From: Gemmatimonadota bacterium
Lineage (GTDB): Bacteria; Gemmatimonadota; Gemmatimonadetes; Longimicrobiales; Gaopeijiaceae
Assembly: GCA_030428885.1 (NCBI GenBank)
Contig: JAUIEJ010000011.1
Location: 185,279-249,278 of the forward strand
DNA: 64,000 bases
Reading direction: 5' to 3'
The translations under genes and the position numbers were made by a program. Positions 2,437 to 53,735 of the stretch are shown piece after piece. Below the pieces are notes generated by a model that saw only the letters and a program-made list of their open reading frames with translations, was not told the origin of the DNA and did no database searches. Numbering within the stretch: position 1 is the stretch's first letter; each line of letters begins with the position of its first letter.

Positions 2437-2694
2437 CAATACGATGCATGAAATCTAACGGCGGGTTTTCGGCCCTTTCGAAGGCCCCGTCACGGCCCGG
2501 CGCGGGCCTCCGAGACCACACGGCGAGCGACCTTCGATCCACGAAAGGGCAGCGCCCGGTCGAGGGCCTCTACCGGCCACCAGCGCCACGGTCTCGCACC
2601 CGCCGGCTCCGGCCCATCTCAAACCTGTCAAGGGCGATTCGGGACACCGCGCCACGCCCTTGCGCCCCCACCCAGCCCTCGTCCAGTTCATCGC
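2437..2694. other. divergent intergenic region
   Basis: This region of 258 bases separates the leftward HNH gene from the rightward membrane-protein gene and should hold both promoters. I see no clear -35/-10 pair. The stretch 2493-2600, read on the minus strand, faintly resembles the core and right end of the 165-bp element family (CGTGACGGGG and GCGCTGCCCTTTCGTGG), but no matching left end was found. Confidence 0.3.
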
Positions 2695-3156
2695 ATGGAT
2701 GCCCAGCCCCTTCCGCCGACGACCCGTCGATCCGGGCCCCACCGCACGCGCATCGCCCTCTGGGTCGTCCTGCTCCTCAGTTGGCTCGTGCTCCTGCCCA
2801 TGCTCTGGAACGCGTTCTCCACGGTCCCCTCCATGGAGCGCCTGTCCCAGTCGCGCATGGTGGAGATCCCCACGCTCCGTACCGTGGGACTCCTGGTGGG
2901 CCGCAGCACCATCGAGGCCGCGATTCTCCTCGCCCTCCTCGCGCCGTGGATCCCCCGACACTACCTGACCCGCCTCTGGCTGGCGGCCGTGGGCCTGGGC
3001 GCGTGGTTCCTGGCCACCACCCCCCTGGGCCTGACCCGCATGTCGTGGATCCATCGCCGCTGGTTGGCCCTGATGTGGGTGACCCTCGTCGTCGCCGCCC
3101 TCGTCGGGAGCGCCGTGGGAATGCGCTCGCGAGTCGGCAGGGACGGGGCCGGGTAG
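2695..3156 (+). CDS. small multipass inner-membrane protein, unknown function
   Basis: 153 aa, about four hydrophobic segments: roughly residues 20-42 (IALWVVLLLSWLVLLPMLW), 63-84, 92-110 and 122-142. The N-terminus is short and basic (RRSGPHRTR), consistent with a cytoplasmic start and positive-inside orientation. No cofactor, transporter or enzymatic motif is visible. It stands alone: divergent from the HNH gene and convergent with the ADOP permease, with the repeat element at 3185-3349 directly after it. It is a hypothetical protein supported by frame, codon use and the regular membrane topology. Confidence 0.7.
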   Translation: MDAQPLPPTTRRSGPHRTRIALWVVLLLSWLVLLPMLWNAFSTVPSMERLSQSRMVEIPTLRTVGLLVGRSTIEAAILLALLAPWIPRHYLTRLWLAAVGLGAWFLATTPLGLTRMSWIHRRWLALMWVTLVVAALVGSAVGMRSRVGRDGAG

Positions 3157-3184
3157 CTCGGAGCCACTCCCCCCGAGCGCGCCA

Positions 3185-3349
3185 CAACCCGTCGCGGCGA
3201 CCTCGTTCTTCCTCCCGCGACAAGAAGGAGTGCCTATGGCACATCAAGTCTCCTTCGTCCGCGGAATTCGGGCTGCCGCGCCCGGTTCGGGTGATATGGA
3301 GTCCTCAATCGGGCCTGCGATCTCGAAGTCGCCCATCGCGACGGGTTTT
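3185..3349 (+). repeat. 165-bp TIR element, copy A
   Basis: Ends are AACCCGTCGCG (3186-3196) and CGCGACGGGTT (3337-3347), perfect inverses. Relative to copies C and D both ends carry the same A-to-G/T-to-C change, so complementarity is kept. Arm 1 pairs GAAGGAG (3224-3230) with CTCCTTC (3250-3256), with GTGCC-TAT-GGCAC inside. A second ATA lies at 3294-3296. It sits between convergent genes. Confidence 0.75.
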
Positions 3350-3388
3350 GGGGGCCCGAGACGCTCCACCCCCGGTTGAACGACCCGC

Positions 3389-5854
3389 CTACTCCCCCCG
3401 CAACACCGCCACGGGATCGCCGCGCACCGCGCGCCCCACGGGAACCGCCGCCGCAAGCACGACCCCCACGAGCAGGACCCCGCCCGCGACCCCCATCGAC
3501 ACCGGGTCCGTGGGAGACAGCCCCCACAGCAGTCCCCCCACCACCCGCGTCGCGGCGAAGGCCCCGGCCAGGCCGACGGCAAGTCCCACGAGGGCGGCCA
3601 GGCCCACCGATCCCGCCACCACCCGGGTGATGTCGAGCCAGTCGCCGCCCACGGCCCTGCGGATGCCGATCTCCCGGCGTCGGGCGGCCACGGCGAGGGT
3701 GACCACGGCGAACACACCGGTAGCGGCCAGGAGCAGTCCCAGGACCGCGATGAGCGTGAACAACTCGGCGTTCATCCGCTGCGAGTACAGGAACCCCGCC
3801 ACCACGTCGCCATAAGACAGGACGTTCAGGATCGCCAGACGCGTGTCGACGTCGCGGAACGCGCCCTCCAGGGCGGTCACCGCGGCCGTGGGGTCCCCTC
3901 GCACTTTCACCACCACCGCGTTTCCGGGCCGGGAATAGACCTGGGGCAGGGAGAAGTACGCCACGGGGCCGGGCTCCTCCAGGAGCGCCACCTGCCGGAC
4001 GTCGCGCACCACCCCCACGATCTCGAAGCCCTGCTCCGGCGACCCCTCGCTCTCGGGCACCCGGAGCGCCCGACCCAGGGGATCGCCGTCGCCTACCACG
4101 AGTCGGGCCAGGGTCTCGTTGACCAGGACGACCCCCGCCGAGGCCAGGGTGTCGGTGGGCAGGAACGCGCGCCCCCGCACCACCTCCATCTCCAGCAGCT
4201 CGACGTAGCCGGGCCAGACCCGGGCCACCGTGGCCGCCACGGGGTCGGAGCCCTCCGGAGGAAGCAGGTCCAGGCGCGGATGACCCGACAGGGGCGCGTT
4301 TTCCGCCACGGTGGCGTCGGCCACCCAGGGCAGCTCCACGAGGCGCCGGCGCAGGTCGTCGTAGAACCGGTGCCGCTCGGCGATGGGCACCCCCATGCTG
4401 CTGGTGCTCACGTAGCTCGCGATGGTCCGTTCGGTGTCGAAGCCCGGGTCCACCCGGCTGGTGGCCTGGAGAGTGCGCAGCACGAGCCCCGCCACGAAGA
4501 GCAGCACCACGCACAGGGCGATCTGCCCCCCGACCAGAATCGAGCGCGTGCCCGGACGCCAGGGCCGGCGGCTGCCCTCCGTCACCGACCGGCCCCCGCC
4601 CGCCCCCATCGACTCGGCCGGGTCGCGAGACGAGACCCGAAGAGCAGGCAGGAGCCCCGTGACCACACCCGTGAGCAGGGCCATCCCGCACGCGAACGCC
4701 AGCACCCGGGGCGAGACCACGACCTCTCGGGCCACGTTGGCCCCCCACACGCTGGGCCGGGCGAAGTACGAGCTCAGGCGAAGCCCGGCGGGGCCCGCCA
4801 GGAGGACGGCGATCACACCCGCGCCCCCCGCCACGAGCAGGCTCTCCAGCAGGCTCTGGCCCACGAGGCGGCCCCGGGACGCCCCCACCGCTCGTCGCAA
4901 CGCCATCTCCGAGGTGCGGCTCGCGCCGGTGGACAGCACCAGGTTGGCGACGTTGGCGCACGCCAGCAGCAGGAGGAGTGCGGCCGCCGCCATGAGAACC
5001 CGGGCCGTGGTGGCCTCGGCGTCCCGGGTGGCGGGCCCGATCCAGGTGGCTGGTTCCAGCACGAACCGCCGGGGGCCGCCGGCCAGGGGCGCCTCGGCGT
5101 CCAGAGCCGCGGCGAAGGAGACGAGGGCCGCGCCGGCCGCCTCCCGCCCCCCCGACCGGCGCAGGATGGGGATCACCACCCCCACCTCCCGGTTGCCCCG
5201 GGTGGAGTCCCCAGGCCGATAGACCCGCAGATACTGCTCCAGGGGCAGGTAGAACTGGGGCCGGAAGGCGGCGTCGGCCCCCAGGAACGCCGGGCCCGCG
5301 ACCCCCACGATGACGTAGGCCTCGTTGTTCAGGAGGATCGTCTCGCCCACCGCGGCGGGGTCGGAGCCGTAGTGGGACACCCAGTAGTCGTGGGCCAGAA
5401 CCGTGGTGGGGGGAGCCCCCGGGGCGTCGTCGTCGGGCGAGAATCCGCGGCCCGCGGCCATCTCCACGTCCAGCACCGAGAAGAAGCCGCCCGCCACACT
5501 CTGGCCGTACGCCACCCCCGCCTCGTCGCCCCGACGCACCGAGGCGGCGAACGACCCGGCGCCCACCCCCGTGACCTCCAGCCCCGCCGGATCCAGCGCC
5601 TGCAGGTCGTGGAAGTCCGGCCAGGAGAGGGCGTTCCACGGGCCGTCGTCGGTGGCGCGCCAGATCTGGTCCAGGGGTTCGGCCCGGGCGCCGGGAAAGG
5701 CCCGGGAATAGGCGCTCACGTAGCTGAACACCGCCGTACTCGTGGCCAGGCCGAGGACGAGGGTCCCCATGGCCAGCAGCGTGTGGCGGGGATGCCGGGC
5801 CAGGCGCCGAATCGCTGCCCCGACGTCGTCGATCCAAACGTGGAGTGCCGCCAT
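3389..5854 (-). CDS. ABC transporter permease of the ADOP/MacB-FtsX type
   Basis: 821 aa. The start M at 5854 is chosen because family homology begins at once: DDVGAAIRRLARHPRHTLLA followed by a first membrane helix (MGTLVLGLATSTAVFSYV) matches the N-terminal FtsX unit of ADOP permeases; the open frame upstream is antisense to the neighbour. A MacB-like periplasmic domain (about residues 55-260) precedes three helices (near ACANVANLVLSTGASRTSEM), then the unit repeats: second periplasmic domain and C-terminal helices ending VGRAVRGDPVAVLRGE. The long N-terminal cytoplasmic ADOP segment seen in the paralogue at 25155 is absent. These permeases are thought to work with a LolD/MacB-like ATPase; none is encoded beside it, so partner and substrate are unknown. 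Confidence 0.88.
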   Translation of the reverse strand: MAALHVWIDDVGAAIRRLARHPRHTLLAMGTLVLGLATSTAVFSYVSAYSRAFPGARAEPLDQIWRATDDGPWNALSWPDFHDLQALDPAGLEVTGVGAGSFAASVRRGDEAGVAYGQSVAGGFFSVLDVEMAAGRGFSPDDDAPGAPPTTVLAHDYWVSHYGSDPAAVGETILLNNEAYVIVGVAGPAFLGADAAFRPQFYLPLEQYLRVYRPGDSTRGNREVGVVIPILRRSGGREAAGAALVSFAAALDAEAPLAGGPRRFVLEPATWIGPATRDAEATTARVLMAAAALLLLLACANVANLVLSTGASRTSEMALRRAVGASRGRLVGQSLLESLLVAGGAGVIAVLLAGPAGLRLSSYFARPSVWGANVAREVVVSPRVLAFACGMALLTGVVTGLLPALRVSSRDPAESMGAGGGRSVTEGSRRPWRPGTRSILVGGQIALCVVLLFVAGLVLRTLQATSRVDPGFDTERTIASYVSTSSMGVPIAERHRFYDDLRRRLVELPWVADATVAENAPLSGHPRLDLLPPEGSDPVAATVARVWPGYVELLEMEVVRGRAFLPTDTLASAGVVLVNETLARLVVGDGDPLGRALRVPESEGSPEQGFEIVGVVRDVRQVALLEEPGPVAYFSLPQVYSRPGNAVVVKVRGDPTAAVTALEGAFRDVDTRLAILNVLSYGDVVAGFLYSQRMNAELFTLIAVLGLLLAATGVFAVVTLAVAARRREIGIRRAVGGDWLDITRVVAGSVGLAALVGLAVGLAGAFAATRVVGGLLWGLSPTDPVSMGVAGGVLLVGVVLAAAVPVGRAVRGDPVAVLRGE

Positions 5855-5938
5855 GGTCCCAACCTGAGGCGGCCTCGTGCCCCACGCCAGCAAGGCCCCG
5901 ACTGGCGCCGTCCACGCCCGGGCACCGAGGTTTCCCCC

Positions 5939-6982
5939 ATGGACACCCTCCTCGCCTACACGGATTGGCTGCGGGCCCAGTGGCGCCGACACCTGGCCGC
6001 CGACCCCGCGCGCCTGCGCCTCGATCTCGGCCCCCATCGCGACGCCCGCTTCGCCACCGTAGGTGAGGTGGTGCGGCACATCTTCGGGGCGGAACTCCGA
6101 TACGTCGACCGGATTCGGGGGCGGCCGGCCACCGACGTCTCCGGAGTCCCCAGTGACGACGTGGAGGCCCTCTTCGACTTCGGGGACCGGTCCCGGGCGG
6201 CCCTCGTGGCACTCCGAGCCGAGATGTCGGACGACGACCTGGAGGCGGAGGCGGTGTACCCCATCGGGGCCTTCGAATTTCAGGGGACTCCGCGCAAGGT
6301 CTTGATCCACACCCTGATCCACGAGATCCGCCACTGGGCTCAGTTGGCCACGCTGCTTCGCCTCGAGGGAGCCGGGCCGGGCCTCCAGGACTTCCTGGTC
6401 AGCCCTGTCATGGGTGGCGAGTTCCGACGCCGGGCCACACTCCGCCCGGGCACGGAGTCCGACGCCGCCGACGCCGCCCGGGTCAACGTCACCTCCTGGC
6501 GGGCCGAGTACCGCCACCTCTTCTCCGACGCCTTCCTCGACGGGCTGTCGGTGGAGGGCCGCACCACGGCCATGGCCCGTCGCTTCGGCGGGCCGGGCTA
6601 CGGCATGCTGGTGGCCGAGGACGCCGACCACGGGGTGGTGGGCTTCGCCGATTGGGGACCGCCTCGAGACGCCTCCCCCCACGACCGGGAGCTCTTCGCC
6701 ATCTACGTGCTGCCCGGCCACCAGGGCAGGGGCTTGGGCCGGCGGCTGTTGACCGAGGCGGCCCGCCGGATGCTGGACGACGGCGCCACCTCGCTCATGC
6801 TCAGCGTCTTCACCGGCAATCCCCACCGGCCCTTCTACACCCACCTGGGCGGGGAGGAGATCGGTCGCGAGACCCTCGAGCTCGACGGGGGGCAGCACGA
6901 GGTCGTGCTCTATGCGTGGTCCCACGACGCCCTCCGCCGGTTGACCGGGGCGGGGGCCGCCCCCGAATCGCGTCGCCGTTGA
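5939..6982 (+). CDS. DinB-like metal-binding domain fused to GNAT acetyltransferase
   Basis: 347 aa, two domains. Residues about 1-160 look like a DinB/YfiT four-helix bundle: MDTLLAYTDWLRAQW, then VRHIFGAELRYVDRIRG and HEIRHWAQLATLLRLEG, giving the three His expected as metal ligands. From about residue 175 a GNAT fold follows: TESDAADAARVNVTSWRAEY at the N-terminal helix, GFADWG at beta-4, LFAIYVLPGHQGRGLGRRLL with the acetyl-CoA Q-G-R-G-L-G loop, and FYTHLGGEEIG near the end. DinB-like proteins include thiol-dependent transferases; GNATs acetylate small molecules or proteins. The combination suggests a detoxification enzyme, which is inference. It starts 84 bases from the divergent permease. 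Confidence 0.85.
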   Translation: MDTLLAYTDWLRAQWRRHLAADPARLRLDLGPHRDARFATVGEVVRHIFGAELRYVDRIRGRPATDVSGVPSDDVEALFDFGDRSRAALVALRAEMSDDDLEAEAVYPIGAFEFQGTPRKVLIHTLIHEIRHWAQLATLLRLEGAGPGLQDFLVSPVMGGEFRRRATLRPGTESDAADAARVNVTSWRAEYRHLFSDAFLDGLSVEGRTTAMARRFGGPGYGMLVAEDADHGVVGFADWGPPRDASPHDRELFAIYVLPGHQGRGLGRRLLTEAARRMLDDGATSLMLSVFTGNPHRPFYTHLGGEEIGRETLELDGGQHEVVLYAWSHDALRRLTGAGAAPESRRR

Positions 6983-7014
6983 CAGAGGGCGGGGCCCCGG
7001 TGCTAGATGGGGGC

Positions 7015-8244
7015 ATGCTGCGATTCCGTGCCTCCCGCCCCTGGCTGATCCCCCTCCTCGCGCTGGCCGCGGGCCTGGGGGCGTGCGAGGAGGAGGGCAT
7101 CACCAACGACCCCACCCTGGGCCCGCCCGAGACCCCGGGCGATTCCACCATGCCGCAGGCCTTCGACCGGGTGCTGGTGGGCCGGGGGGGCAAGGTCCTG
7201 GCCCGGGAATCGTGGATCTGGATTCCGGGATCGGGCTGGCGCCCGCCGTACTTCATGCCCGAGCCCGGGGTGAGCGACGGCACCATCGCCGAGGGCATCC
7301 GGCGGGCCCAGGCGTCGGGGGGATCGGCCCCGGCCTCGTCGCCGCCCAACGTGGAGGCCGACGCGGCCCTCTTCGCCGGGGGCTACGGGCCTGACGGCGC
7401 CCCGGCGGGAGACCAGGCGTACTTCTACGACGGAGCCACGGACGAAACCGCGGCGTTCCGCATGAGCCGGGCTCGGGTCGATCACACGGTGACCGCGCTC
7501 TACGGAGGGCGGTTCCTGGTGGTGGGCGGCAACGACGAGACGTCGGCGCCCTCGGCCACGGCGGAGATCTTCGACGCCGCCGCCCCGGGCTTCTCTCCCA
7601 CCGGGTCCATGGCCCACGCTCGCTGGGGGCATGCGTCGTCGCTCCTGCCCGATGGGCGGGTCCTGGTCACGGGCGGACAGGACGACACCGGTTCGGCGGT
7701 ACGCGCTGCCGAGGTATGGGACCCCGCCACGGGCGTCTTCACCCAGGCCGGGACCCTGGCCGAGGAACGCATCGGCCACGCCCAGATCACGCTCCCCGAC
7801 GGACGGGTGCTGGTCATGGGAGGAGCGGGCCGGAACGACGCCGAGTTGTGGGACCCCGACACGGGCAACTTCACCGCCACACTGAGCATGGTCTCGCGCC
7901 ACGGTGTGGGACTCACCGCCACCCGCCTGCTGGACGGTCGGGTGCTGGTCCTGGGCGGCGACGGCACCGACGGCCGCGGGCAGGCCACCGACCAGTCGGA
8001 GATCTTCGACCCGTCGCTGAACGCCTTCCGGTCGGTGGGCCCCATGAATTCGGCCCGCATGCGGCACTACGCCGTCCTCCTGGCCGACGGCCGGGTCCTC
8101 ATCGGCGGCGGCATCGACGAGTCCGGGTTCCCCACCTCCAGCGCCGAACTCTTCGACCCGACCCTCGAGCGGTTCAGCACCACCGACACCATGCCCGAAG
8201 AGAGCGCGGGCGCGGCCGCCGTGTTCCTGGCGGGCGGAGGGTGA
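7015..8244 (+). CDS. lipoprotein with kelch-type beta-propeller repeats
   Basis: 409 aa. The start at 7015 gives a lipoprotein signal peptide: MLRFRASRP, a hydrophobic run, then LGAC with Cys near residue 23. The mature part contains about six repeats of the kelch/galactose-oxidase type, each with a strand such as DGRVLVTGGQDD or DGRVLVLGGDG followed by AE(V/I)WDP..G.F; clear units end near F-TQAGTL, FTATLSM, FRSVGPM and FSTTDTM. This predicts a beta-propeller exposed on the envelope; no catalytic Cys-Tyr pair of galactose oxidase was identified, so a binding or scaffold role is more likely. The next gene begins immediately after its stop, suggesting cotranscription. Confidence 0.8.
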   Translation: MLRFRASRPWLIPLLALAAGLGACEEEGITNDPTLGPPETPGDSTMPQAFDRVLVGRGGKVLARESWIWIPGSGWRPPYFMPEPGVSDGTIAEGIRRAQASGGSAPASSPPNVEADAALFAGGYGPDGAPAGDQAYFYDGATDETAAFRMSRARVDHTVTALYGGRFLVVGGNDETSAPSATAEIFDAAAPGFSPTGSMAHARWGHASSLLPDGRVLVTGGQDDTGSAVRAAEVWDPATGVFTQAGTLAEERIGHAQITLPDGRVLVMGGAGRNDAELWDPDTGNFTATLSMVSRHGVGLTATRLLDGRVLVLGGDGTDGRGQATDQSEIFDPSLNAFRSVGPMNSARMRHYAVLLADGRVLIGGGIDESGFPTSSAELFDPTLERFSTTDTMPEESAGAAAVFLAGGG

Positions 8245-9507
8245 GTGCGATCCCTCGCCCTTCTCTTCGCCGTCATGACCGCGACGGCGGCCCCTCTCCC
8301 GGGCCAGCTTCCGGAGGCCGGCGGGGAACCGATCCCTGCTGAGGAACGGGTGGCCGCATACGACGCGGCGACCCGTCGCCTCCTCCGCATGGGCGTCCTG
8401 AGGGTGGCCCCGCGACCGGGATACTGTGTGGTGCTGAGCCCGCGGGATGCCGAGGTCGAGGGGGTGATCCGCGGGATTCTCGGCGACGAGCCGCCCGAGC
8501 CCACCGATGTGGACCCCATCCCCCTCGACGTCACGGACTGCCCCCGCAACGTGGGGCTGCGTCGATACGTGCTCGACGAGCCGCGCCGGGCGGACGACGG
8601 TACGGTCACGGTGACGGTCTCGGGAGACGACCTGCTGGAATGGCCACCGAGCCTCGACGGCCTCTACTGGGGCCGCTGGTCCGCCCGGTGTACCGTCACC
8701 GACGCCGGCTCCGACGGCACCTCCTGCGACGTGAGACCGGTGTCGACCGGCGAGCGAGCCGTGGACGAGCGCTCGCTGGACCGCCGCGGTCGCTTCTTCG
8801 GCACGAACGAGGTGCACCCCGCCGGAGGTCGGCCGGCCCGACTGGTGGCGCGGAACACCGGCAGTGCCCGGGCCGACACCATGGACTTCGGGGTGGACTC
8901 GGTTGCCTACGTCTACGACCTGCCCGTCCTGAGCCCTGGGCACGACCGGTGCACGGCGAGCAGTCTTCTATCGGCGTACTCCGCATGGCCACCGGCCGGC
9001 CATCGGCTCGTGCGGATCGAGTTGGCTACCGAAATCGAATTCGCGCCGCAAGCGGCTCGATTGATGGACGTGGTCCAGGACCGCGCCGAAGCCGACGACG
9101 GACCCGTGATCGCGGTCCAGTGCGGCGAACCGCGGTCCCAGCCCTTCGCCATCACGAGCCTGGAAGAGGTCGGCCTGCAACTGGACGGACCGGTGCGGCA
9201 CTGCCCCGATGATCGGTGTAGCCACGAGGTGATCGTGCCGGTGCACGATCCCCTTCCGCTCGCCGCGCGTTTTCGCCTCTCGGACTTCGATCTGGGAGAC
9301 GAGGGCGAGGGCGACACCGTGCACCTCCAGTTCGAAACCAACGGATGGGGGACCGGCCTCGTGCCGTTCCTCGTGATCCTGGGGGACCATCCGTGGGCCG
9401 AGGCCTTCCGTCCCACCTGGCACAGCCGCCACCACCGGGTTCCCCTGAACCGCGGCGCCCGCTTCGAAGGGGATCCCGAGGTGTTGCTCTTCCTGGTGCG
9501 GCGGTAG
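8245..9507 (+). CDS. secreted protein of unknown function
   Basis: 420 aa. GTG at 8245 abuts the previous TGA. A signal peptide is apparent (RSLALLFAVMTATAAPLPGQ, cleavage after about residue 20). The rest is mostly beta-type with scattered Cys (GYCVVL, VTDCPRN, ARCTVT, TSCDV, HDRCTAS, VQCGEP, RHCPDDRCSH), an even number compatible with disulfides outside the cytoplasm. I recognise no family. The tight linkage to the kelch lipoprotein suggests that the two act together at the cell surface. Element B follows its 3' end. Confidence 0.7.
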   Translation: MRSLALLFAVMTATAAPLPGQLPEAGGEPIPAEERVAAYDAATRRLLRMGVLRVAPRPGYCVVLSPRDAEVEGVIRGILGDEPPEPTDVDPIPLDVTDCPRNVGLRRYVLDEPRRADDGTVTVTVSGDDLLEWPPSLDGLYWGRWSARCTVTDAGSDGTSCDVRPVSTGERAVDERSLDRRGRFFGTNEVHPAGGRPARLVARNTGSARADTMDFGVDSVAYVYDLPVLSPGHDRCTASSLLSAYSAWPPAGHRLVRIELATEIEFAPQAARLMDVVQDRAEADDGPVIAVQCGEPRSQPFAITSLEEVGLQLDGPVRHCPDDRCSHEVIVPVHDPLPLAARFRLSDFDLGDEGEGDTVHLQFETNGWGTGLVPFLVILGDHPWAEAFRPTWHSRHHRVPLNRGARFEGDPEVLLFLVRR

Positions 9508-9550
9508 CTGACCGGGGGCCGTCGCGACGAGGGCCTGCCGACAGCGCCCT

Positions 9551-9717
9551 CCAACTCGACACGCCGGCTCTCCCGGCGGGCCCGTGTCGCATTGGGGTGC
9601 CTATAGCACCTCAAGTCGACGCGCGAGGGGGGTCGCAGCTTTCCCGTGTCCGATATGGGCCGTATAGGCGCCTCTTTCCGGCGGGCTCCCTCGAGAAGGC
9701 ACGGCATGACGGGTTGT
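9551..9717 (+). repeat. 165-bp TIR element, copy B
   Basis: The right end CATGACGGGTTG (9706-9717) matches the family; the left end CCAACTCGACACG (9551-9563) is degenerate, 11 of 13 family positions. Arm 1 has GGTGC-CTATA-GCACC (9597-9611) inside an outer CGTGTCG/CGACGCG stem, with the TCAAGT seen in copy A. The core CGCAGCTTTCCCGTG and a second ATA (9664-9666, in GCC-GTATA-GGC) follow. It lies between convergent genes. Confidence 0.65.
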
Positions 9718-9813
9718 GGCGGGCGCGGCGGCCTCCGGGCACCTGACCCCCTCTTACCCACCGGGAGCCCGCCCGTCCTGGCGCGGGCCCCCGGGTCGCC
9801 TGACGCAGCTCCG

Positions 9814-11943
9814 CTACGGCGAGGGCGGCGGAGCCGACGAGAACCCCAGCACCTCGTCCCAGACCTTCCGGGATCCGGGCGTGCCTTTGCCGTTCGTCGT
9901 GCGGTCGCGGACATTCAGCTCGACGCTGAAGGCGCAGAACGTGCCACCCTCCAGCCACCCGCTGGACGGCGGAGCGAGGGTCAACGTCACGTAGCCGTCC
10001 ACGTCGGCCGTCGGGCGCTCCGACGTGCCGTAGTAGCGGGTGTCCACCGTGGCTCCGGGATACGCCCCCGACGGGGGCGACGCCGTGGCGGTGTCGGTGA
10101 GGCCCACCGGGTGGTTGCTGCCCTTCACGGCCGACAGGCTCCAATCCGCCAGGAACCCGTCGGGGTCCAGGGCCCGGAGCCGCACCTGCAGGGGCGTGGT
10201 GTCGGTGGGGAGGGTGAGCAGCCCGCAGTCCCCCGGATCCCCGCCCCCGGGCACCACGATGGAGGCGATGTCGCCCGTGGCGGGCTGGGCGTCGACGCGA
10301 AGCTTGATGGTGTCGTACGTGTTCGGCACGTACGCCCCGGTGTCGTCGTAGCCCCGGATGATGAAGTGCACGTCCTCCACCTTGCGGGCGAGGCCCGGGG
10401 TGAGGAGGCTCGCCAGGTTCACCCGGGCCTTGCGGTGCTGCACCTCCAGCGACCAGCCCGTTTCGAGCTCGATGTTCCGGTAGGCGGGCACGGTCCCGAT
10501 GCTCAGGGCCGTGGGGGTCGCCCCGTACGACTCGCTCACCCACACCCCCGTGCCTTGCTGGCGCAGCCCGCTGGCGGTCACGCTCAGGGGGTTCCATCCA
10601 CCCGAGCCCGCCCGCACCCAGATCACGTAGTGCTTCACCGGGGTCACGGCCCCTTCGAAGCACCCGATGATGTCCAGGACTCCGTTCCAGGCGCCCCGCT
10701 CGATGGCGGGCCCGGATTCCGAGGCCGGCGTGTTGGTGATGGTGCCGTCGGGGTGCAGGGTCGATCCCGGGTTGTTGACGATGGGGATGTCGCCCAGGTA
10801 CTGGAGCACCCGGTCGCCTCGACACGGCTTGGGCACCAGCGACGCCGCGGGAATGCAGAGGTTGATGCGGCGCACGTTGGGAATGTTGTAGTACGGCGCG
10901 GTCTCGTGGACCGCCACGCCGTCGGGATCGTCCACGAACTGGATGATGAGGTCCGGACGGGCCTCCACGGCCGGATCGCTTCCCGCCGGGGCGTCGTCGG
11001 TGGACTCGCCGATGAGCTGGGCGAGGGAGCGCTGGAAGCTGAAGACGTAGTTGCCCTGTTCGTCGGTGGCGGTGAGGCCCAGGGTCTCGCGATTTCCGAA
11101 CCCCTCGTACGCACCCCCGCCGAGTTCCGAATCGGTGCGGTCGTACTCCACGAACCGGAGCAGGGCCTGGGCGATGGGCTCCACCTCGCAGGGATGGAAG
11201 AGCCTCAGGCGGTTCAGGAGGCTCGCTTCGGCCACCGTGAGATCGGCGGCGAAGACCGGGTTCCGCGCCGCCCGCAGCTCGGCCACGTCGCCCACCACCA
11301 GGGTCTCCTTCTTCGACCTGCCCTGGGCCTTCGTCTCCACGGTGGTGGCGCCCCGCACCGTCACGCCGCCCTTGGGCCCACCCCCTCGGGACAACACCAG
11401 GGGCGTGAAGCGCTCGGCCTCCACCAACCGCTCCACGTCGGCCCCGTAGACCCGCTCCAGGATGGGGCGCACCTCTCGGTAGCGGAGCAGCCGCTCGAGC
11501 TGCCGCCGCGTGTCGATGACGACCCAGGGGTACGGAAAGCACGGGTTGAATCGGCAGTGGCCGCGGTACGAGCGCGCGGTCCCATACACGATCCACTCGC
11601 TGTCGCTCAGGGGCTTGGAGAGGGTGAGCACGAGATCGTCGAAGTCCTCGTCGGCGGCGCCCCCACCGTCGTCGCTCTGGATGTCGACCCGGAAGAAGCC
11701 CGACTCCACCCGGAAGTTGGCCAGGCGCGCCCTGGACTCGCGCCAGGTCACGGGGCCCGTGGGGTTGTTCTGGATCGTCACGCCCCACTGGTCGCCGGTC
11801 ACGAGCACGTCGGCGGCCCCCGTGGTGCCGGCGTAGGTGCCGTCCTGCCCGTTGGTGGATCCGGCGACGATGAAGCGCTGGGGCCAGGCGGCGTTCTTCG
11901 CCGCCACCGAGATGTTCCAGGTGCCCTGGAGTCCGATGGCCAT
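9814..11943 (-). CDS. large protein of unknown function, second gene of a two-gene module
   Basis: 709 aa, not recognised. The ATG at 11943 is chosen because the preceding gene stops 3 bases upstream (TAG at 11948-11946), implying translational coupling; the longer open frame overlaps that gene. There is no signal peptide or membrane segment. Visible parts: an N-terminal beta-rich region (GLQGTWNISVAAKNAAWPQRF), an acidic stretch (DDGGGAADEDFDDLVLTL), FNPCFPYPWVVIDTRRQLER, LLNRLRLFHPCEVEPIAQAL, a beta-sandwich-like middle (NYVFSFQRSLAQL..RPDLIIQFVDDPDG, carboxypeptidase-regulatory-like in style), then Ig-like C-terminal segments (YVTLTLAPPSSGWLEGGTFC). It resembles a modular binding or structural protein more than an enzyme. 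Confidence 0.7.
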   Translation of the reverse strand: MAIGLQGTWNISVAAKNAAWPQRFIVAGSTNGQDGTYAGTTGAADVLVTGDQWGVTIQNNPTGPVTWRESRARLANFRVESGFFRVDIQSDDGGGAADEDFDDLVLTLSKPLSDSEWIVYGTARSYRGHCRFNPCFPYPWVVIDTRRQLERLLRYREVRPILERVYGADVERLVEAERFTPLVLSRGGGPKGGVTVRGATTVETKAQGRSKKETLVVGDVAELRAARNPVFAADLTVAEASLLNRLRLFHPCEVEPIAQALLRFVEYDRTDSELGGGAYEGFGNRETLGLTATDEQGNYVFSFQRSLAQLIGESTDDAPAGSDPAVEARPDLIIQFVDDPDGVAVHETAPYYNIPNVRRINLCIPAASLVPKPCRGDRVLQYLGDIPIVNNPGSTLHPDGTITNTPASESGPAIERGAWNGVLDIIGCFEGAVTPVKHYVIWVRAGSGGWNPLSVTASGLRQQGTGVWVSESYGATPTALSIGTVPAYRNIELETGWSLEVQHRKARVNLASLLTPGLARKVEDVHFIIRGYDDTGAYVPNTYDTIKLRVDAQPATGDIASIVVPGGGDPGDCGLLTLPTDTTPLQVRLRALDPDGFLADWSLSAVKGSNHPVGLTDTATASPPSGAYPGATVDTRYYGTSERPTADVDGYVTLTLAPPSSGWLEGGTFCAFSVELNVRDRTTNGKGTPGSRKVWDEVLGFSSAPPPSP

Positions 11944-11945
11944 GG

Positions 11946-13247
11946 CTACTCCTCCCCGTCGTCGTCGGCGGGGCAGCAGCGGTACTCCTGGGCCTGGTCC
12001 AGCAGCTCGATCTTCCGCTCCAGCAGCCGGTTTTCGAGCTGCTTCCGCTCCAGGTCGAGTTCCATCTCCCGCTGGAGGGCGTGCTCGCAGGTGCCGCACT
12101 CGTCCAGGCATCCCTTCACGAACAGCCCCGGCGTGGGCAACCACTCCTCCCGCTCCCACGACAGCTCGGCGATGATCTTTTCGGTGGGCTCGCCGTTGGC
12201 CTTGAGCAGGCCCGCCTTCTGGAGCTGGGCATCGACGCCCTTCAGCGCCTTCTCCCGCTGGTCCACGGGCGCGGGCTGACGCACGGCGCCCACGCCGCGG
12301 AGCGCGGCCGCATCGAAGCTGCCGGTGAACACCACCCGCTCCCGCTCCATGGCCGCCTCCCGGGCGATGCGCTCCTTGGCGAGGCGGTCGGCGCTGGTGG
12401 CCAGCACGACCTGGGGCCGCACCTGTACCTTGCCCGTGAGATCGGGGCCGATGCGCCGGTCGGGGGTCGTGGGCGCGGCGGGATCGGAATAGACCCGCTG
12501 GATCGCCACGAGCCGCCACCGCACGGTCTGCTTCTTCATGAGGCGATGGAAGAAGTAGGTGACGGCGTGGCAGCGATTGGGGTTGGAGAAAGTCCGCGAC
12601 GACGACTCCAGGTGGGTCTCGGACTCGCCCTCGGCATGGGACCGGGTCTGGACCTCACCCACCGACGTGGAGGTCTTGGCCCGCACCCCCGCGGCCACGT
12701 AGCTCGACGACGACTCGGCGTGGGTGGAGAGGTTGCGGGCGAACTGGCTCGTGGACTCGGCGTCGAAACTGCCCCCGCCGCCGCCGCCGCCGATGTCGAT
12801 GATGCCGAAGAGACTGACGCTGGCGCCGCCGCCGCCCGACGCCCAGTCCTCTTCGTACTCGTTGGAGACGCTCCCCGACTCGCTCACCGTGAGGTCGCTC
12901 ATGGAGCGGGCCATGCCCCAGGTGTAGTAAGACTCCTCCGAGGTCGTCTCGTGCCGGTAGGCCAGGGAGGTCTCGGAGTCGTAGGTCCACCGCGAGTGCC
13001 GGTCGCTGGTGAAGAGCCGCACCCGCTCGCCGGGGAAGAGGGTCGTGGAGTACGCCAGGTCGCCCAGGGCCATGGGGCCCGAGCAGCGCTCGAGGCGGAA
13101 ATGCAGGATCAGGTCCACCCGACCGTCACCCACGCGCCAGGGAAGGCGGTATCGAAAGTCGAGGCGGTCGCAGATCGGGCCCCGCTCGAGCTGGGGGCAG
13201 CACTCCAGGTGGGCGACGGAGGTCGGAACGTCGTCGTGATCGGCCAT
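11946..13247 (-). CDS. Gly/Ser-rich protein with Cys clusters and C-terminal coiled coil, unknown function
   Basis: 433 aa, not recognised. ATG at 13247 follows GGAGA at a good distance. No signal peptide. From the N-terminus: a Cys-containing start (HLECCPQLERGPICDR), a beta-rich domain (RVDLILHFRLERC, LFPGERVRLFTSDRHS), a Tyr/Ser-rich segment, a poly-Gly run near residues 150-158 within GIIDIGGGGGGG, a Ser/Glu/His-rich tract, then FSNPNRCHAVTYFFHRLMKK and a strand WRLVAIQRVY. The C-terminus holds CLDECGTCEH, a heptad-like helix (MELDLERKQLENRLLERKIE) and RCCPADDD, possibly a metal site. It is coupled to the 709-aa gene. With a BTAD regulator just upstream on the other strand this may be a small self-contained system. 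Confidence 0.72.
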   Translation of the reverse strand: MADHDDVPTSVAHLECCPQLERGPICDRLDFRYRLPWRVGDGRVDLILHFRLERCSGPMALGDLAYSTTLFPGERVRLFTSDRHSRWTYDSETSLAYRHETTSEESYYTWGMARSMSDLTVSESGSVSNEYEEDWASGGGGASVSLFGIIDIGGGGGGGSFDAESTSQFARNLSTHAESSSSYVAAGVRAKTSTSVGEVQTRSHAEGESETHLESSSRTFSNPNRCHAVTYFFHRLMKKQTVRWRLVAIQRVYSDPAAPTTPDRRIGPDLTGKVQVRPQVVLATSADRLAKERIAREAAMERERVVFTGSFDAAALRGVGAVRQPAPVDQREKALKGVDAQLQKAGLLKANGEPTEKIIAELSWEREEWLPTPGLFVKGCLDECGTCEHALQREMELDLERKQLENRLLERKIELLDQAQEYRCCPADDDGEE

Positions 13248-13557
13248 GGGGAGTCTCCGGAAGGAAGGGGACTGCGAATCGAGTTGGACACCCACGGTGC
13301 CAGGCCCCCGTCCCGCCCTCGTCCGCCCTCCGTCTCGCCTTCGTCTCACCGTCGTCTCGTCTTCGTCCCGGGTTCGAGCACGGATCCGCTTGCCCTTCTC
13401 CCGCCGCGCGGCCTATCGTGCATCTCCGGATCCGATCCGTCGCGTCCGGGAATCCGAGACTCGCTCAGGGTGTGGCCGGGGGACTCCCGGCCGCTCTGAG
13501 GCTGCGTAGGGAAGGGCGTCTTCCCAGTCCGGCGGACTCCGACGAGCCCCCGGTCCC
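13248..13557. other. divergent intergenic region between the two-gene module and the BTAD regulator
   Basis: 310 bases without a gene. 13300-13370 is a pyrimidine-rich tract with repeated CGTCTC/CGTCTTC words. Two hairpins lie near the regulator: GGCCGGG/CCCGGCC (13474-13492) and GGGAAG/CTTCCC (13509-13525). No clear sigma-70 pair is visible. The region must contain the promoters of both transcription units. Confidence 0.5.
13474..13492 (+). other. hairpin upstream of BTAD regulator
   Basis: GGCCGGG (13474-13480) and CCCGGCC (13486-13492) form a perfect 7-bp stem with a 5-base loop. A second hairpin with a 6-bp stem follows at 13509-13525. Their position in the leader of the regulator gene allows a regulatory role, which is not shown. 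Confidence 0.4.
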
Positions 13558-14340
13558 GTGCTCCAGATTCATCTCTTCGGCGGAGTCGACGTCTCCGCCC
13601 CCGGCGATGGGCGCCTCTGCCCGTCGAGCCGTTCGTGCAGGACCCTGGTCGCCTACCTGGCCCTCCATCGGGGACGCCTGTTTCCCCGGGAACGCCTGGC
13701 GGGCACGCTCTGGCCCGACCGGTGCGACCGGGCCGCCCAGAAGAAGCTCCGGAACTGCCTGTGGCGCCTGGGCCGCGCCATGCCCTCGGGCCGGGAGCCC
13801 GTGGTGGTGGACGGGGGCCGCATCGGCCTGGCCTCGTCGGTGTGGATCGACGTGGAGGAGTTCCGGGCCGCCGCCTCGGAGGCCCGCTCTGCAGACGGCG
13901 GGCGCCTCTCCGCCGACCACGTGACCCGCCTCGAACGGGCCGTCACCCTGTACCGAGGCGACCTGCTGGAAGGCTTCGACGACCACTGGGTGGCGGGCCC
14001 CCGGGAGACCCTGCGGCTGCTCCACCAATCGGTGCTGGAGCAGCTCGTGCTCCACTACCGGGCCGCCGGGAATCCGCGGCAGGCGATCCTGCGGGGCCGG
14101 GAGCTCATTCAGCGGAACCCGTTCCTGGAGCACGTGCACCGGGAGCTCATGCTGTGCCACTGGGCCCTGGGCGACCGGCCCATGGCGGTGCGGCAATTTC
14201 ACGCCTGCGAAGACGTCCTGCGGGAAGAGCTGGACCTGGAGCCCATGGCCGAGACCCGGGCGCTGGTGGAGCGCATTCGATCGGGGGCGGGGCCCCGGGA
14301 GGAGGGCGACCGAGCGGCGCTCGCCCACGGTCCGCACTGA
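13558..14340 (+). CDS. SARP-like regulator with BTAD domain
   Basis: 260 aa from GTG 13558. The N-terminus (LQIHLFGGVDVS, then CRTLVAYLALHRGRLFPRER and LAGTLWPD) is the OmpR-type winged helix of AfsR/SARP proteins; RNCLWRLGRAMP continues it. Residues about 100-245 are the bacterial transcriptional activation domain, a TPR-like helical bundle: VTLYRGDLLEGFDDHWV, LVLHYRAAGNPRQAILRGREL, RELMLCHWALGDRPMAVRQFHACEDVLREELDLEP. There is no NB-ARC or sensor domain, so this is the short activator form. It is divergent from the unknown two-gene module, its most likely target; the SIMPL gene follows 60 bases downstream. Confidence 0.88.
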   Translation: MLQIHLFGGVDVSAPGDGRLCPSSRSCRTLVAYLALHRGRLFPRERLAGTLWPDRCDRAAQKKLRNCLWRLGRAMPSGREPVVVDGGRIGLASSVWIDVEEFRAAASEARSADGGRLSADHVTRLERAVTLYRGDLLEGFDDHWVAGPRETLRLLHQSVLEQLVLHYRAAGNPRQAILRGRELIQRNPFLEHVHRELMLCHWALGDRPMAVRQFHACEDVLREELDLEPMAETRALVERIRSGAGPREEGDRAALAHGPH

Positions 14341-16985: not shown

Positions 16986-17606
16986 ATGAATTCGACGCAC
17001 GTCGCCTCCCTCGCCACCGCGTTCCTCCTGGTGCCCATGGCCCTGGCCGCCCAAAACCCCCACGTGGGGCACGTGGCCACGGGCTTCGCCAACACGCCCG
17101 ATGGTATGGGACTCCTCCCTGCCGCCGAGGCCGAGGCCGCCGTGGCGCGGCAGCATGCCGATCTCGCCGCCCGGGACCTGTCCAGCCTGAGCTCCATGAA
17201 GACCCACGTGGCCCACGTCCAGCACGCCCTGAACCCCACGGTGGTGGAGAACGGGCCGGGGCTGGGCTACGGCGTGGTGGCGGCCGCCGAGGGCGTGGCC
17301 CGGCACATCGAGTTGGCGGCCGGCGTCGATGGCGCCGGCGACATGGTGACGCGTCACGCGCCCCACGTCGCCCAGTCGGCCCGGAACGCCCTGGCCCGGG
17401 CCCAGCGCATCCTGGAGCTGGCCACCCAGGTCCAGGCTGCCGACAACGCCGCCTCCGCCGGGCCCATGGTCCAGGATATCCAGACCCTGGCCGCCGAACT
17501 GGTGGACGGCGTGGACGCCGACGGCGACGGCAGCGTGGGCTGGCAGGAGGGCGAGGGCGGCCTGGCCACGGCGCGGCAGCACCTCGGGTTCATCGTGGGG
17601 GGCTAA
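16986..17606 (+). CDS. secreted alpha-helical protein with one EF-hand-like loop
   Basis: 206 aa from ATG 16986, preceded by GGAG at 16976-16979. A signal peptide (HVASLATAFLLVPMALAAQ) is followed by a His- and Ala-rich helical protein: HVGHVATGFANTPDG, VARQHADLAARDLSSLSSMK, THVAHVQHALNPTVV, GVARHIELAAG. Near the C-terminus DADGDGSVGWQEGEGG fits a calcium-binding EF-hand loop. I recognise no named family. The high His content and the D-x-D-x-D-G loop suggest metal binding in the periplasm, which is inference. Its stop overlaps the convergent gene by 4 bases. Confidence 0.75.
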   Translation: MNSTHVASLATAFLLVPMALAAQNPHVGHVATGFANTPDGMGLLPAAEAEAAVARQHADLAARDLSSLSSMKTHVAHVQHALNPTVVENGPGLGYGVVAAAEGVARHIELAAGVDGAGDMVTRHAPHVAQSARNALARAQRILELATQVQAADNAASAGPMVQDIQTLAAELVDGVDADGDGSVGWQEGEGGLATARQHLGFIVGG

Positions 17607-18178
17607 CTCAGCGTCACCATCTCGCCGTTCTCGCCCTCGACCGAGACCCCGGCGATGATGAGGTTCCGGCCGCCGCCCGGCTCGCTCGACACCCGCCAGC
17701 CCTCGGGAGTCGAACGGAGGACGTACATCTCGGGGGAGTCATCGACGGAAGGGGCCGGTGCCGGGTTCCGCTGCGCCGCCCGCTCGCGGACGATGACGTA
17801 GGCGCGGGATCCGTCCGCCACCGTACCGGCCACGCGGTAGCGGTCCCACCAACGCGCGTCGGTGGGCGAGTGGCGGCCCAGTTTCGCCGCGTGCTCGGGA
17901 TGCTTCGCCTTGAGGGCGGCCAGCACCCGGGCGTAGCGGGTGCCCGGGTCGGTGGCCTCGAGGTGACGAGCCCAGGTCTCGGCCGCATCGAGGGCGGCGA
18001 GTTCCTCTTCGGAGTGCACCCCGGCGAAGTGATCGCTCCAGGAGGGCCCGTAGTGCGCCGGGGCCCGACGCTTGAAGTCGGCGAGGAACGCGGGGGTGAA
18101 GAGGGCGGCGGCATCCCGCCAGCGCCGCTCGTCCAGGGCCGACAGCAACGCCTCGACCACCTGGGCGGGTTCGCTCAC
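17603..18178 (-). CDS. unknown protein, paralogue of the gene upstream
   Basis: 191 aa from GTG 18178; the start overlaps the TGA of the upstream gene by 4 bases (GTGA), so translation is probably coupled. It shares its layout with that neighbour: PAQVVEALLSALDERRWRDA, AALFTPAFLADF, LEATDPGTRYARVLAALKAKHPEHAAKL, then VAGTVADGSRAYVIVRER and a C-terminal strand LIIAGVSVEGENGE. A helix-rich start and a curved sheet (VVGTV, AYVIV, YVLRS, GWRVSS) resemble an NTF2/SnoaL-like cone, a tentative reading. No signal peptide. The pair arose by tandem duplication. Confidence 0.72.
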   Translation of the reverse strand: MSEPAQVVEALLSALDERRWRDAAALFTPAFLADFKRRAPAHYGPSWSDHFAGVHSEEELAALDAAETWARHLEATDPGTRYARVLAALKAKHPEHAAKLGRHSPTDARWWDRYRVAGTVADGSRAYVIVRERAAQRNPAPAPSVDDSPEMYVLRSTPEGWRVSSEPGGGRNLIIAGVSVEGENGEMVTLS

Positions 18179-18789
18179 GGTGCCTCCTCCTCGAACTTCA
18201 GGGGCAGGAACACGCGCTTGCCACGGTCGTCGGTCACGCTGAGGCCGCCGAGATGCCACCGACGATTTCTCCGCAGCTCTCCCGATACCCGCCAGCCGTG
18301 GTTCCGGCGGCGAAGCACCACCGTGTCGGGGGGAAAGTCGAGGGGTAGGGCGAGATCGTCGGAAGCGTCCCGCTTCCGGATCACCGCCCACGCCTGGTCG
18401 CCGTCGACCACGGTGCCCACCACCCGCAGATTCCACGCGTCGGTCCATTCGTCGCCGACGCGTGCCAGCTGCTCGGCATGCTCCGGGTACTGGGCTTCCA
18501 GCGCGGCCGCCACCTTCGCCACTCGCGTGCGGGGGTCGGTGGCCTCGAGGGAGCGGGCGAACGCCTCGTGCGGGGCCATCGCTTCGAGGGCTTCCAGGGA
18601 CTCCACGCCGGCGACGTCGTCCCTCAGCACCCGCGGCCGGAGTGTCCCGTGGCGATGCTGCGCCAGCACCTCGTTCGTTCGTGCCGCGTGCACCTCGGGG
18701 GTGAAGAGGGCGGCCGCGTCCCGCCACCGCTCCTCGCCGAGGGCGGCGATCAGCGCCTCCACCACCGGTGTCGGGTCGGGGGAATCCAT
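18175..18789 (-). CDS. unknown protein, first of a tandem paralogous pair
   Basis: 204 aa from ATG 18789. It aligns along its length with the following gene: PTPVVEALIAALGEERWRDA, AALFTPEVHAAR, RSLEATDPRTRVAKVAAALE, YPEHAEQLARV, LRVVGTVVDGDQAWAVIRKR, VVLRRRNHGWRVSGEL, GLSVTDDRGKR. Conserved W-R-D-A-A-A-L-F-T-P and the final sheet suggest an NTF2-like fold, not proven. It lies divergent from the secreted protein at 18899, with a perfect dyad between them. No membrane segment or enzymatic motif is seen. Confidence 0.72.
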   Translation of the reverse strand: MDSPDPTPVVEALIAALGEERWRDAAALFTPEVHAARTNEVLAQHRHGTLRPRVLRDDVAGVESLEALEAMAPHEAFARSLEATDPRTRVAKVAAALEAQYPEHAEQLARVGDEWTDAWNLRVVGTVVDGDQAWAVIRKRDASDDLALPLDFPPDTVVLRRRNHGWRVSGELRRNRRWHLGGLSVTDDRGKRVFLPLKFEEEAP

Positions 18790-53126: not shown

Positions 53127-53535
53127 CCCGCGCCCCCAACCCTCCACAAGTCCGCGATTCCTGAAGGAAGAGTCGGTTTGGGGGCGCTGGAGCGCCCCCA
53201 ATCATCCACACCACGCGGCGGCCGAGCCGCTTGGGGTCACTTGATGCGGCCAGGCGCCCCCAATCATCCACACGGGCCCGCCTCTCGGGCCTCGGGGTGA
53301 CTTGGGGGCGTTCGGAAAGACGGCGGGATCCGGCCCCGCGCCCCCAACCCACCACAACGCCGCCATTCCGTAAGGAGATGTCAGTTTGGGGGCGCTGGAG
53401 CGCCCCCAATCATCCACACCACGCGGCGCTCGAGCCGGTTCGGGTCACTTGATGCGGCCAGGCGCCCCCAATCATCCACACGGGCCCGCCTCTCGGGCCT
53501 CGGGGTGACTTGGGGGCGTTCGGAAAGACGGCGGG
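53127..53535. repeat. tandem duplication of a 208-bp unit
   Basis: Two copies with a period of exactly 208 bases (53127-53334 and 53335-53535). Each contains CGCGCCCCCAACC at the left, then TTGGGGGCGCT-GG-AGCGCCCCCAA (a 24-base hairpin at 53178-53201 and 53386-53409), two direct copies of GCGCCCCCAATCATCCACAC, and CTTGGGGGCGTTCGG at the right. Copies are near identical except for the segment after the first 15 bases. Confidence 0.88.
53178..53201. repeat. perfect 11-bp-arm hairpin in repeat copy 1
   Basis: TTGGGGGCGCT and AGCGCCCCCAA are exact inverses around GG. The identical hairpin is at 53386-53409 in copy 2. The right arm is the start of the 20-mer GCGCCCCCAATCATCCACAC found at 53192, 53254, 53400 and 53462. 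Confidence 0.85.
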
Positions 53536-53735
53536 TGGACGCCTCCGGGGTCGGCTCCGCGGGGCGTTGGGAAAGACGGCGGGTGGACGCCTCCGGGGTC
53601 GGCTCCGCGGGGCGTTCGGAAAGGCGCGGGTGGACGCCCTCGGGGTCGGCTCCGCGGGGCGTTGGGAAAGACGGCGGGTGGACGCCCTCGGGGTCGGCTC
53701 CACGGGGCGTTCGGAAAGGCGCGGGTCGAAGGGCG
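53513..53735. repeat. 47/48-bp tandem array, about 4.5 copies
   Basis: The word CGTT(C/G)GGAAA recurs at 53517, 53565, 53613, 53660 and 53708 (periods 48, 48, 47, 48), and a partial unit starts at 53734. Units share GGGTGGACGCC(T/C)(T/C)CGGGGTCGGCTCC in the middle. Two unit types, AAAGACGGCGGG and AAAGGCGCGGG, alternate in the later copies. Confidence 0.88.

What the first reader, a model, noticed from the sequence alone, without database searches (positions are those of the whole stretch)
9814..14340. Unrecognised two-gene module beside a BTAD regulator
Two coupled genes encode a 433-aa Gly/Ser-rich protein with Cys clusters and a C-terminal coiled coil, and a 709-aa multi-domain beta-rich protein, both without signal peptides. 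A SARP/BTAD activator is divergent from them. Cytoplasmic, structural-looking, regulated and of no known family, they are candidates for an undescribed assembly.
Basis: inference. Interest (0 to 1): 0.6.

Follow-up and report, generated by a model that had tools for sequence, protein, structure and literature searches.

The report
Conserved cysteine-rich gene module, function unknown
Two neighbouring genes of no known family, apparently switched on by a nearby regulator, turn out to belong to a small set of genes found together in distantly related bacteria; they probably build a cysteine-linked structure, but what it does is untested.

Summary
P1 (433 aa) and P2 (709 aa) form a coupled operon (2-nt gap), divergent from a 260-aa SARP/BTAD gene. 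Neither has a signal peptide or a convincing Pfam, NCBIfam, PHROGs, PADLOC or PDB match. New here: (1) six 11-bp direct repeats, the classic SARP operator form, lie before P1. (2) The pair is conserved: Bacteroidota genome G438 has a P1 ortholog (41% identical) 0.8 kb after a P2 ortholog; a remote version lies in Gemmatimonadota genome G324. (3) P2-type genes are followed by DUF1360 and a small 'M-CCG' protein in 9 genomes of two phyla; this genome lacks both. (4) All four families carry conserved cysteines. The module is rare and patchy, absent from the 5 other genomes of the genus searched. Best explanation: a SARP-switched, cysteine-rich structural module forming a cross-linked, probably envelope-associated layer or fibre, by analogy with coat or crust proteins (moderate-low confidence; assembly, location and cross-linking are inferred). 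Rivals: injection-system cargo, protease-linked effector, metal or redox centre. Both structure predictions failed (pLDDT 36 and 32). Protein families and module: undescribed in the libraries searched. Function: open.

The parts
11946..13247 (-). P1 gene, 433 aa: N-terminal CC-P-C motif, Gly/Ser-rich middle, NPN-CHA motif, D-[ED]-C-x-x-C-E, C-terminal coiled-coil-like helix ending QEYRCCP
   Evidence: 5 orthologs at 38-47% identity incl. P1 as reference
9814..11943 (-). P2 gene, 709 aa, multi-domain, signal-less, 8 Cys of which 7 invariant in 6 homologues
11944..11957 (-). 2-nt junction P1 stop / P2 start with ribosome-binding sequence GGGGAGGAG in P1's last codons
13304..13370 (.). six 11-bp direct repeats (consensus near CGAGACGAAGG in P1 sense), putative SARP operator
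   Evidence: 0 of 2000 shuffles
13558..14340 (+). small SARP/BTAD regulator, 260 aa, divergent

Best explanation
P1 and P2 are the core of a conserved, patchily distributed module whose fuller form is P1 + P2 + a DUF1360 membrane-type protein + a small 'M-CCG' protein. In this genome the small SARP binds the six 11-bp repeats and switches on the P1-P2 operon, and coupled translation makes the two proteins together (operon, repeats and divergence: shown; binding and activation: inferred). The products, made without a recognisable Sec signal, most likely associate through P1's C-terminal helix and Gly/Ser-rich middle and P2's domains, and are locked by cysteine cross-links or bound metal into a proteinaceous layer or fibre at the cell envelope, comparable in logic to coat or crust proteins, which also lack signal peptides (all inferred). 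In relatives DUF1360 would anchor it or help release it; this genome has no DUF1360 or M-CCG gene, so its version is reduced or uses another anchor.
For: Pair near each other in G000, G438 and G324 with different gene orders; P1 ortholog in G438 41% identical, E 3e-97 for that single comparison. Shared leader before both genes in G438, two exact sites in that genome, both here. DUF1360 single and beside P2 in 5 of 5 P2 genomes other than the own; p87 after DUF1360 in 9 genomes. p87 in 4 of 16 P1 carriers against 0 of 40 non-carriers. Cysteines: 8 of P1's 10 invariant in 5 orthologs, 7 of P2's 8 in 6, CC in p87, DCF-x-C in DUF1360. No signal peptide or TM in P1/P2. SARP-type repeats matching the described operator form (PMC4393881, PMC10972967, passages). 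In B. subtilis, yjcA (recalled to be its DUF1360 gene) is sigma-E controlled (PMC517825, passage) and adjacent to cotV of the crust cluster (PMC11708026, passage).
Against: The own genome lacks DUF1360 and p87. P1 not detected in G095 and G418 nor in G465 and G648 (not among the matches). G779 has P2 without p87. In G226, G566 and G506 P1 and the cassette are apart. No sequence similarity to coat proteins; no structure; no export route shown. CxxC/CC motifs fit metal binding equally well.
Confidence: 0.36

Rival explanations
1. Cargo or accessory parts of an extracellular contractile injection system encoded elsewhere: signal-less, multi-domain proteins loaded into or onto the particle.
For: In G886 a 549-aa protein sharing P2's C-terminal region lies about 2.2 kb from Pvc16_N (2.1e-28) and sheath (8.7e-8) genes. 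Sheath matches in G095 (strong), G648, G632, G418.
Against: No sheath match in the own genome, G438, G465, G649 or G566; where present it lies on other contigs than P2 or P1. Four other proteins of the C-terminal-domain type (G086, G615, G897, G983) showed no such genes in the 7-20 kb that I read by eye.
Confidence: 0.12
2. Protease-coupled effector system: P1's Gly-rich hydrophobic middle is a membrane-active or latent segment released or controlled by a linked protease.
For: P1-type domain fused C-terminally to a subtilase in G173 (S8 1.5e-37); P1 next to a peptidase C70/C39-like lipoprotein in G438 and G649.
Against: No protease beside P1 in the window, G324, G632 or G566 as read from the gene lists; no PADLOC match for P1; the C70-like protein looks exported while P1 has no signal peptide.
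Confidence: 0.12
3. Metal- or redox-binding module: CxxC and CC motifs coordinate zinc, iron or copper, and DUF1360 is a related membrane partner.
For: Cys pairs in all four families.
Against: No metal-binding family match; P2's cysteines are spread out rather than clustered; large Gly/Ser-rich and multi-domain architecture is unusual for this.
Confidence: 0.12
4. Phage- or mobile-element-derived structural genes.
For: DUF1360 matches PHROG 781 of phages; patchy distribution; cassette gained or lost as a block between G438 and G649.
Against: No relative of P1 or P2 in viral contigs, or of P2 in phage records; no p87 in phage records; PHROGs has no P1 or P2 match.
Confidence: 0.07
5. Two unrelated genes that happen to be neighbours.
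For: Each occurs without the other in several genomes; order or orientation differs between the window, G438 and G324.
Against: Coupled start, near-adjacency in two further genomes, shared leader in G438; chance of at least 2 of 5 within 2 kb about 3e-5 under random placement, a figure that ignores how G324 was found.
Confidence: 0.06

Closest known systems
Small SARP regulators with 11-bp direct-repeat operators (ActII-ORF4, DnrI, OtcR type)
   Same: BTAD, about 260 aa, divergent gene, direct repeats one helical turn apart
   Different: Six repeats instead of the two or three described in the passages read; the target is not an evident biosynthetic cluster; winged-helix match below Pfam's cut-off
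DUF1360 (PF07098)
   Same: Constant neighbour of P2-type genes in relatives
   Different: Absent from the window's genome; function unknown
CarboxypepD_reg / transthyretin-like domain proteins
   Same: P2-like proteins of G324, G226 and G506 match these domains below or near cut-off; G324 and G226 match P2's C-terminal half by profile
   Different: P2 itself matches no Pfam family at E up to 10
Spore coat/crust proteins of Bacillus (CotV-Z cluster, recalled)
   Same: Signal-less, cysteine-rich; a DUF1360 gene (yjcA, recalled) lies next to cotV
   Different: No sequence match; the carriers are not known endospore formers (recalled)

Membership tests
SARP transcriptional activators (P0003) | Bacterial transcriptional activation domain | tested here: met
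   PF03704 2.1e-23, 83.8 bits against cut-off 22.1
SARP transcriptional activators (P0003) | N-terminal OmpR-type winged helix | tested here: inconclusive
   Trans_reg_C 15.7 bits, below cut-off 26.2; weak AfsR and FevR model matches cover residues 3-243
SARP transcriptional activators (P0003) | Direct-repeat operator at 11-bp steps near the target promoter | tested here: met
   six repeats, 0 of 2000 shuffles
SARP transcriptional activators (P0003) | Repeats overlap the -35 region | tested here: inconclusive
   no promoter-like site found by the sigma-70 scan
Module P2-DUF1360-p87 | DUF1360 and p87 next to P2 | tested here: not met
   own genome has neither; met in 9 other genomes
Extracellular contractile injection system | Sheath protein in the genome | tested here: not met
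   no PF04984 match in the own genome
Coat/crust-type structural proteins | Sequence match to a described coat family | tested here: not met
   no Pfam or NCBIfam match to P1 or P2
Coat/crust-type structural proteins | Cross-linked extracellular assembly | not testable with these tools
   needs protein work
Known anti-phage defence systems | Match to a PADLOC model | tested here: not met
   no match for P1, P2 or the SARP; one chance-level match (E 0.094) in the G438 P2

The most novel reading that the evidence does not exclude
P1, P2, DUF1360 and the M-CCG protein form an undescribed, mobile protein assembly: a membrane-linked, cysteine-locked structure of signal-less proteins, with DUF1360 as its anchor or exit, that bacteria of at least two phyla carry as an accessory and that this lineage has put under a SARP with a six-repeat operator.
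Probability: 0.3. Interest if true: 0.75.

Novelty: new variant of a known kind. Interest (0 to 1): 0.5.

Why it matters
It turns an orphan pair into a conserved module with four testable parts, gives DUF1360 a constant genetic partner outside spore formers, and offers a case where a SARP, known mainly from antibiotic clusters, appears to control structural-type proteins. If the products leave the cell, the signal-less, cysteine-rich design would point to an unrecognised export or release route.

Tried and rejected
Structure prediction: P1 alone gave pLDDT 36.2, P2 with one homologue gave 31.7; both unusable, so no fold search was run. I gave the predictor only window proteins and locus L031 (from the search for related loci), because its stated rule does not list loci from the genome search; a deeper alignment would probably do better.

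Profile searches of Pfam, PHROGs, NCBIfam, PADLOC and PDB sequences gave nothing convincing for P1 or P2 (the single PDB line has E 0.4). Viral contigs, phage and plasmid records: nothing for P1 (phage records were not searched with P1) or P2, nothing for the G324 P2-like protein in plasmids, nothing for p87 in phages or plasmids. Promoter and terminator scans: nothing. Trees could not decide whether P1 or P2 moved between phyla: most forks are open and long branches meet; row G371 was dropped before the P1 tree because my segment held a stop. Transfer is therefore inferred from patchiness and from identity (P1 is 38-47% identical to Bacteroidota orthologs, and 27-30% to five relatives of its own class). 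The G438 leader was sought in all loci then held; close matches with the full leader form occur only in G438 and G649, so it is a local feature. Co-occurrence: p87 in 4 of 16 P1 carriers not found through P2 (the own genome among the 12 without) against 0 of 40 non-carriers, p 0.005; without G324, whose p87 is in the profile, 3 of 15, p 0.017; Gemmatimonadota only, own genome left out, 2 of 10 against 0 of 34, p 0.048. Related genomes are not independent, so this is suggestive only. G779 has a full-length P2 but no p87 in its genome and no DUF1360 in the 20 kb read. The G566 and G506 P2-like proteins match the P2 profile only weakly or not at all (hhalign E 0.0048 and 0.41); for these the link rests on position beside DUF1360 and p87. 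The 2.9e-5 adjacency figure assumes random placement and counts G324, whose cassette was found by looking inside P1 neighbourhoods.
Full report
What is there. The window lies in a 5.39-Mb, 23-contig genome. Its relatives are given only as unnamed handles; that the phylum is Gemmatimonadota is my inference and comes from no call. I call the group of G418 Bacteroidota because L031's record title names an uncultured Sphingobacteriales (L031 lies in G418). On the minus strand P1 (433 aa, 13247-11946) is followed after 2 nt by P2 (709 aa, 11943-9814); P1's last codons hold a strong ribosome site. Divergently, a GTG-started 260-aa SARP gene runs 13558-14340. Neither P1 nor P2 matches any model in Pfam, PHROGs or NCBIfam at E up to 5, nor do the aligned family members match a Pfam family better than E 0.089. 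The family profiles found nothing convincing in the PDB.

Regulation. Between P1 and the SARP gene lies a 67-bp array of six 11-bp direct repeats. At period 11 it has 40 matches of 55, 0 of 2000 dinucleotide-preserving shuffles of the intergenic region reach that, and it is the best 11-bp-periodic place in the window. Two papers, read as passages, describe SARP operators as direct repeats one helical turn apart, with two or three units named (PMC4393881; PMC10972967). Six units is more than those passages mention. That this SARP binds here is inferred from position and form.

Conservation of P2. Full-length homologues (30-41% identity in the first five) exist in G095 (same order), G418 (L031), G438, G465, G648 and G779. 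They are rare: 4 of 395 genomes of the phylum matched, two of them (own and G095) over the full length; 5 of 248 in G418's order, four full length; 7 of 395 in G418's phylum, four full length. Seven of P2's eight cysteines are invariant in six sequences.

The P2 cassette. In each of the five P2 genomes searched besides the own (G095, G418, G438, G465, G648) there is exactly one DUF1360 match and it lies directly beside P2; the own genome has none. A tblastn with the next gene of G438 showed that a small protein starting M-CCG ('p87', 84-91 aa) follows DUF1360 in all five, and also in G324, a genome I had reached only through P1. In G324 the gene before DUF1360 is a 740-aa tryptophan- and cysteine-rich protein whose C-terminal half aligns with the P2 profile (hhalign probability 91, E 1.3e-6, 279 columns; with G226 added and G779 in the family, E 1e-6 over 347 columns, reversed control E 0.1). 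A p87 profile search of 62 chosen genomes found 9: the 6 training genomes plus G226, G566 and G506, all P1 carriers, and none of 40 non-carriers. All three have DUF1360 just before p87 and a large signal-less-looking protein before that (there p87 begins MCNCG in G566 and G506). So P2-type - DUF1360 - p87 occurs in 9 genomes of two phyla. In G226 a 777-aa BTAD regulator starts about 2 kb further on.

Conservation of P1. A P1-type domain is found in 10 of 395 genomes of the phylum and 6 of 248 in G418's order; in the first set of relatives it was 3 of 117. Four Bacteroidota proteins (G438, G649, G632, G566) match over the whole length (38-47% identity) and share with P1 eight invariant cysteines, the NPN-CHA motif, LPT-x-G, D-[ED]-C-x-x-C-E and the terminal QEYRCCP. 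Relatives in the window's own class are more distant (27-30% in the five aligned) and vary: one is the C-terminal part of a subtilase (G173), others are parts of 500-1350-aa frames. None of the five other genomes of the window's genus has P1 or P2.

The pair. P1 and P2 lie together in the window, 0.8 kb apart in G438 (order P2 - DUF1360 - p87 - P1 - C70-like peptidase) and 1.7 kb apart in G324 (divergent). In G226, G566 and G506 both exist but apart. In G438 the same leader element precedes P2 and P1, and the exact 14-mer searched is found nowhere else in that genome. Near relative G649 has the same site with P1 and the peptidase but without the 3-kb P2 - DUF1360 - p87 stretch: a natural gain or loss of the cassette as a block.

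How it may work. Shown: operon, tight spacing, repeat array, co-location in two phyla, lack of transmembrane or signal-like stretches in P1 and P2, and conserved cysteines in all four families. Inferred: that these are parts of one structure. DUF1360's only control hit among 14 well-known genomes is Bacillus subtilis. I recall that protein as YjcA, whose gene is sigma-E controlled (PMC517825, passage) and adjacent to cotV (PMC11708026, passage); PMC3533761 lists yjcA among sporulation genes (passage). Coat and crust proteins are a model for signal-less, cysteine-rich proteins that form a cross-linked layer (recalled). This is an analogy, not homology. The own genome lacks DUF1360 and p87, which weakens the analogy for this copy.

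Against and open. Structure prediction failed for both. The injection-system idea has one real lead, the G886 locus, but this genome has no sheath match. The protease links in G173, G438 and G649 are real but not general. The paper searches found one paper naming DUF1360 or PF07098, a table entry without function, and two papers with Gemmatimonadota and SARP that did not look relevant from the listing. I did not search print for P1 or P2, which have no name.

Verdict. Observation confirmed; interpretation partly supported; protein families and module undescribed in the libraries searched; mechanism open, with a cross-linked envelope-associated assembly as the best guess at 0.36. I rate novelty as a new variant because the best guess is coat-like in logic; if that fails, the module could be of a new kind (novel case).

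Noticed in passing
L077 (G886:C61) 6064-7713 and 9935-13001: A 549-aa protein sharing P2's C-terminal region lies about 2.2 kb from a contractile injection locus (Pvc16_N 2.1e-28, sheath 8.7e-8).
   Followed up: partly
L078 (G983) 2658-7901; L079 (G897) 2511-7770: 534-aa proteins with the P2 C-terminal region lie next to a 1073-1077-aa patatin/DUF3376 protein in both genomes (Pfam run for G983 only).
   Followed up: partly
L022 (G173) 9208-12018: Subtilase (Pfam S8 1.5e-37) with a P1-type domain as its C-terminal part and no signal-like N-terminus.
   Followed up: partly
L039 around 9116 and 12231; L055 around 10816: A shared leader element (GTTAACCCCGCACCG ... TTCCGGTGT) precedes both P2 and P1 in G438 and P1 in G649.
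   Followed up: partly
window 53127-53726: Tandem repeats of 208 bp (2 copies) and 48/95 bp (about 4.5 copies) in a stretch without a called gene.
   Followed up: no
window 17603-18789: Two tandem minus-strand genes (191 and 204 aa) look like diverged copies of each other from their N-terminal sequences.
   Followed up: no
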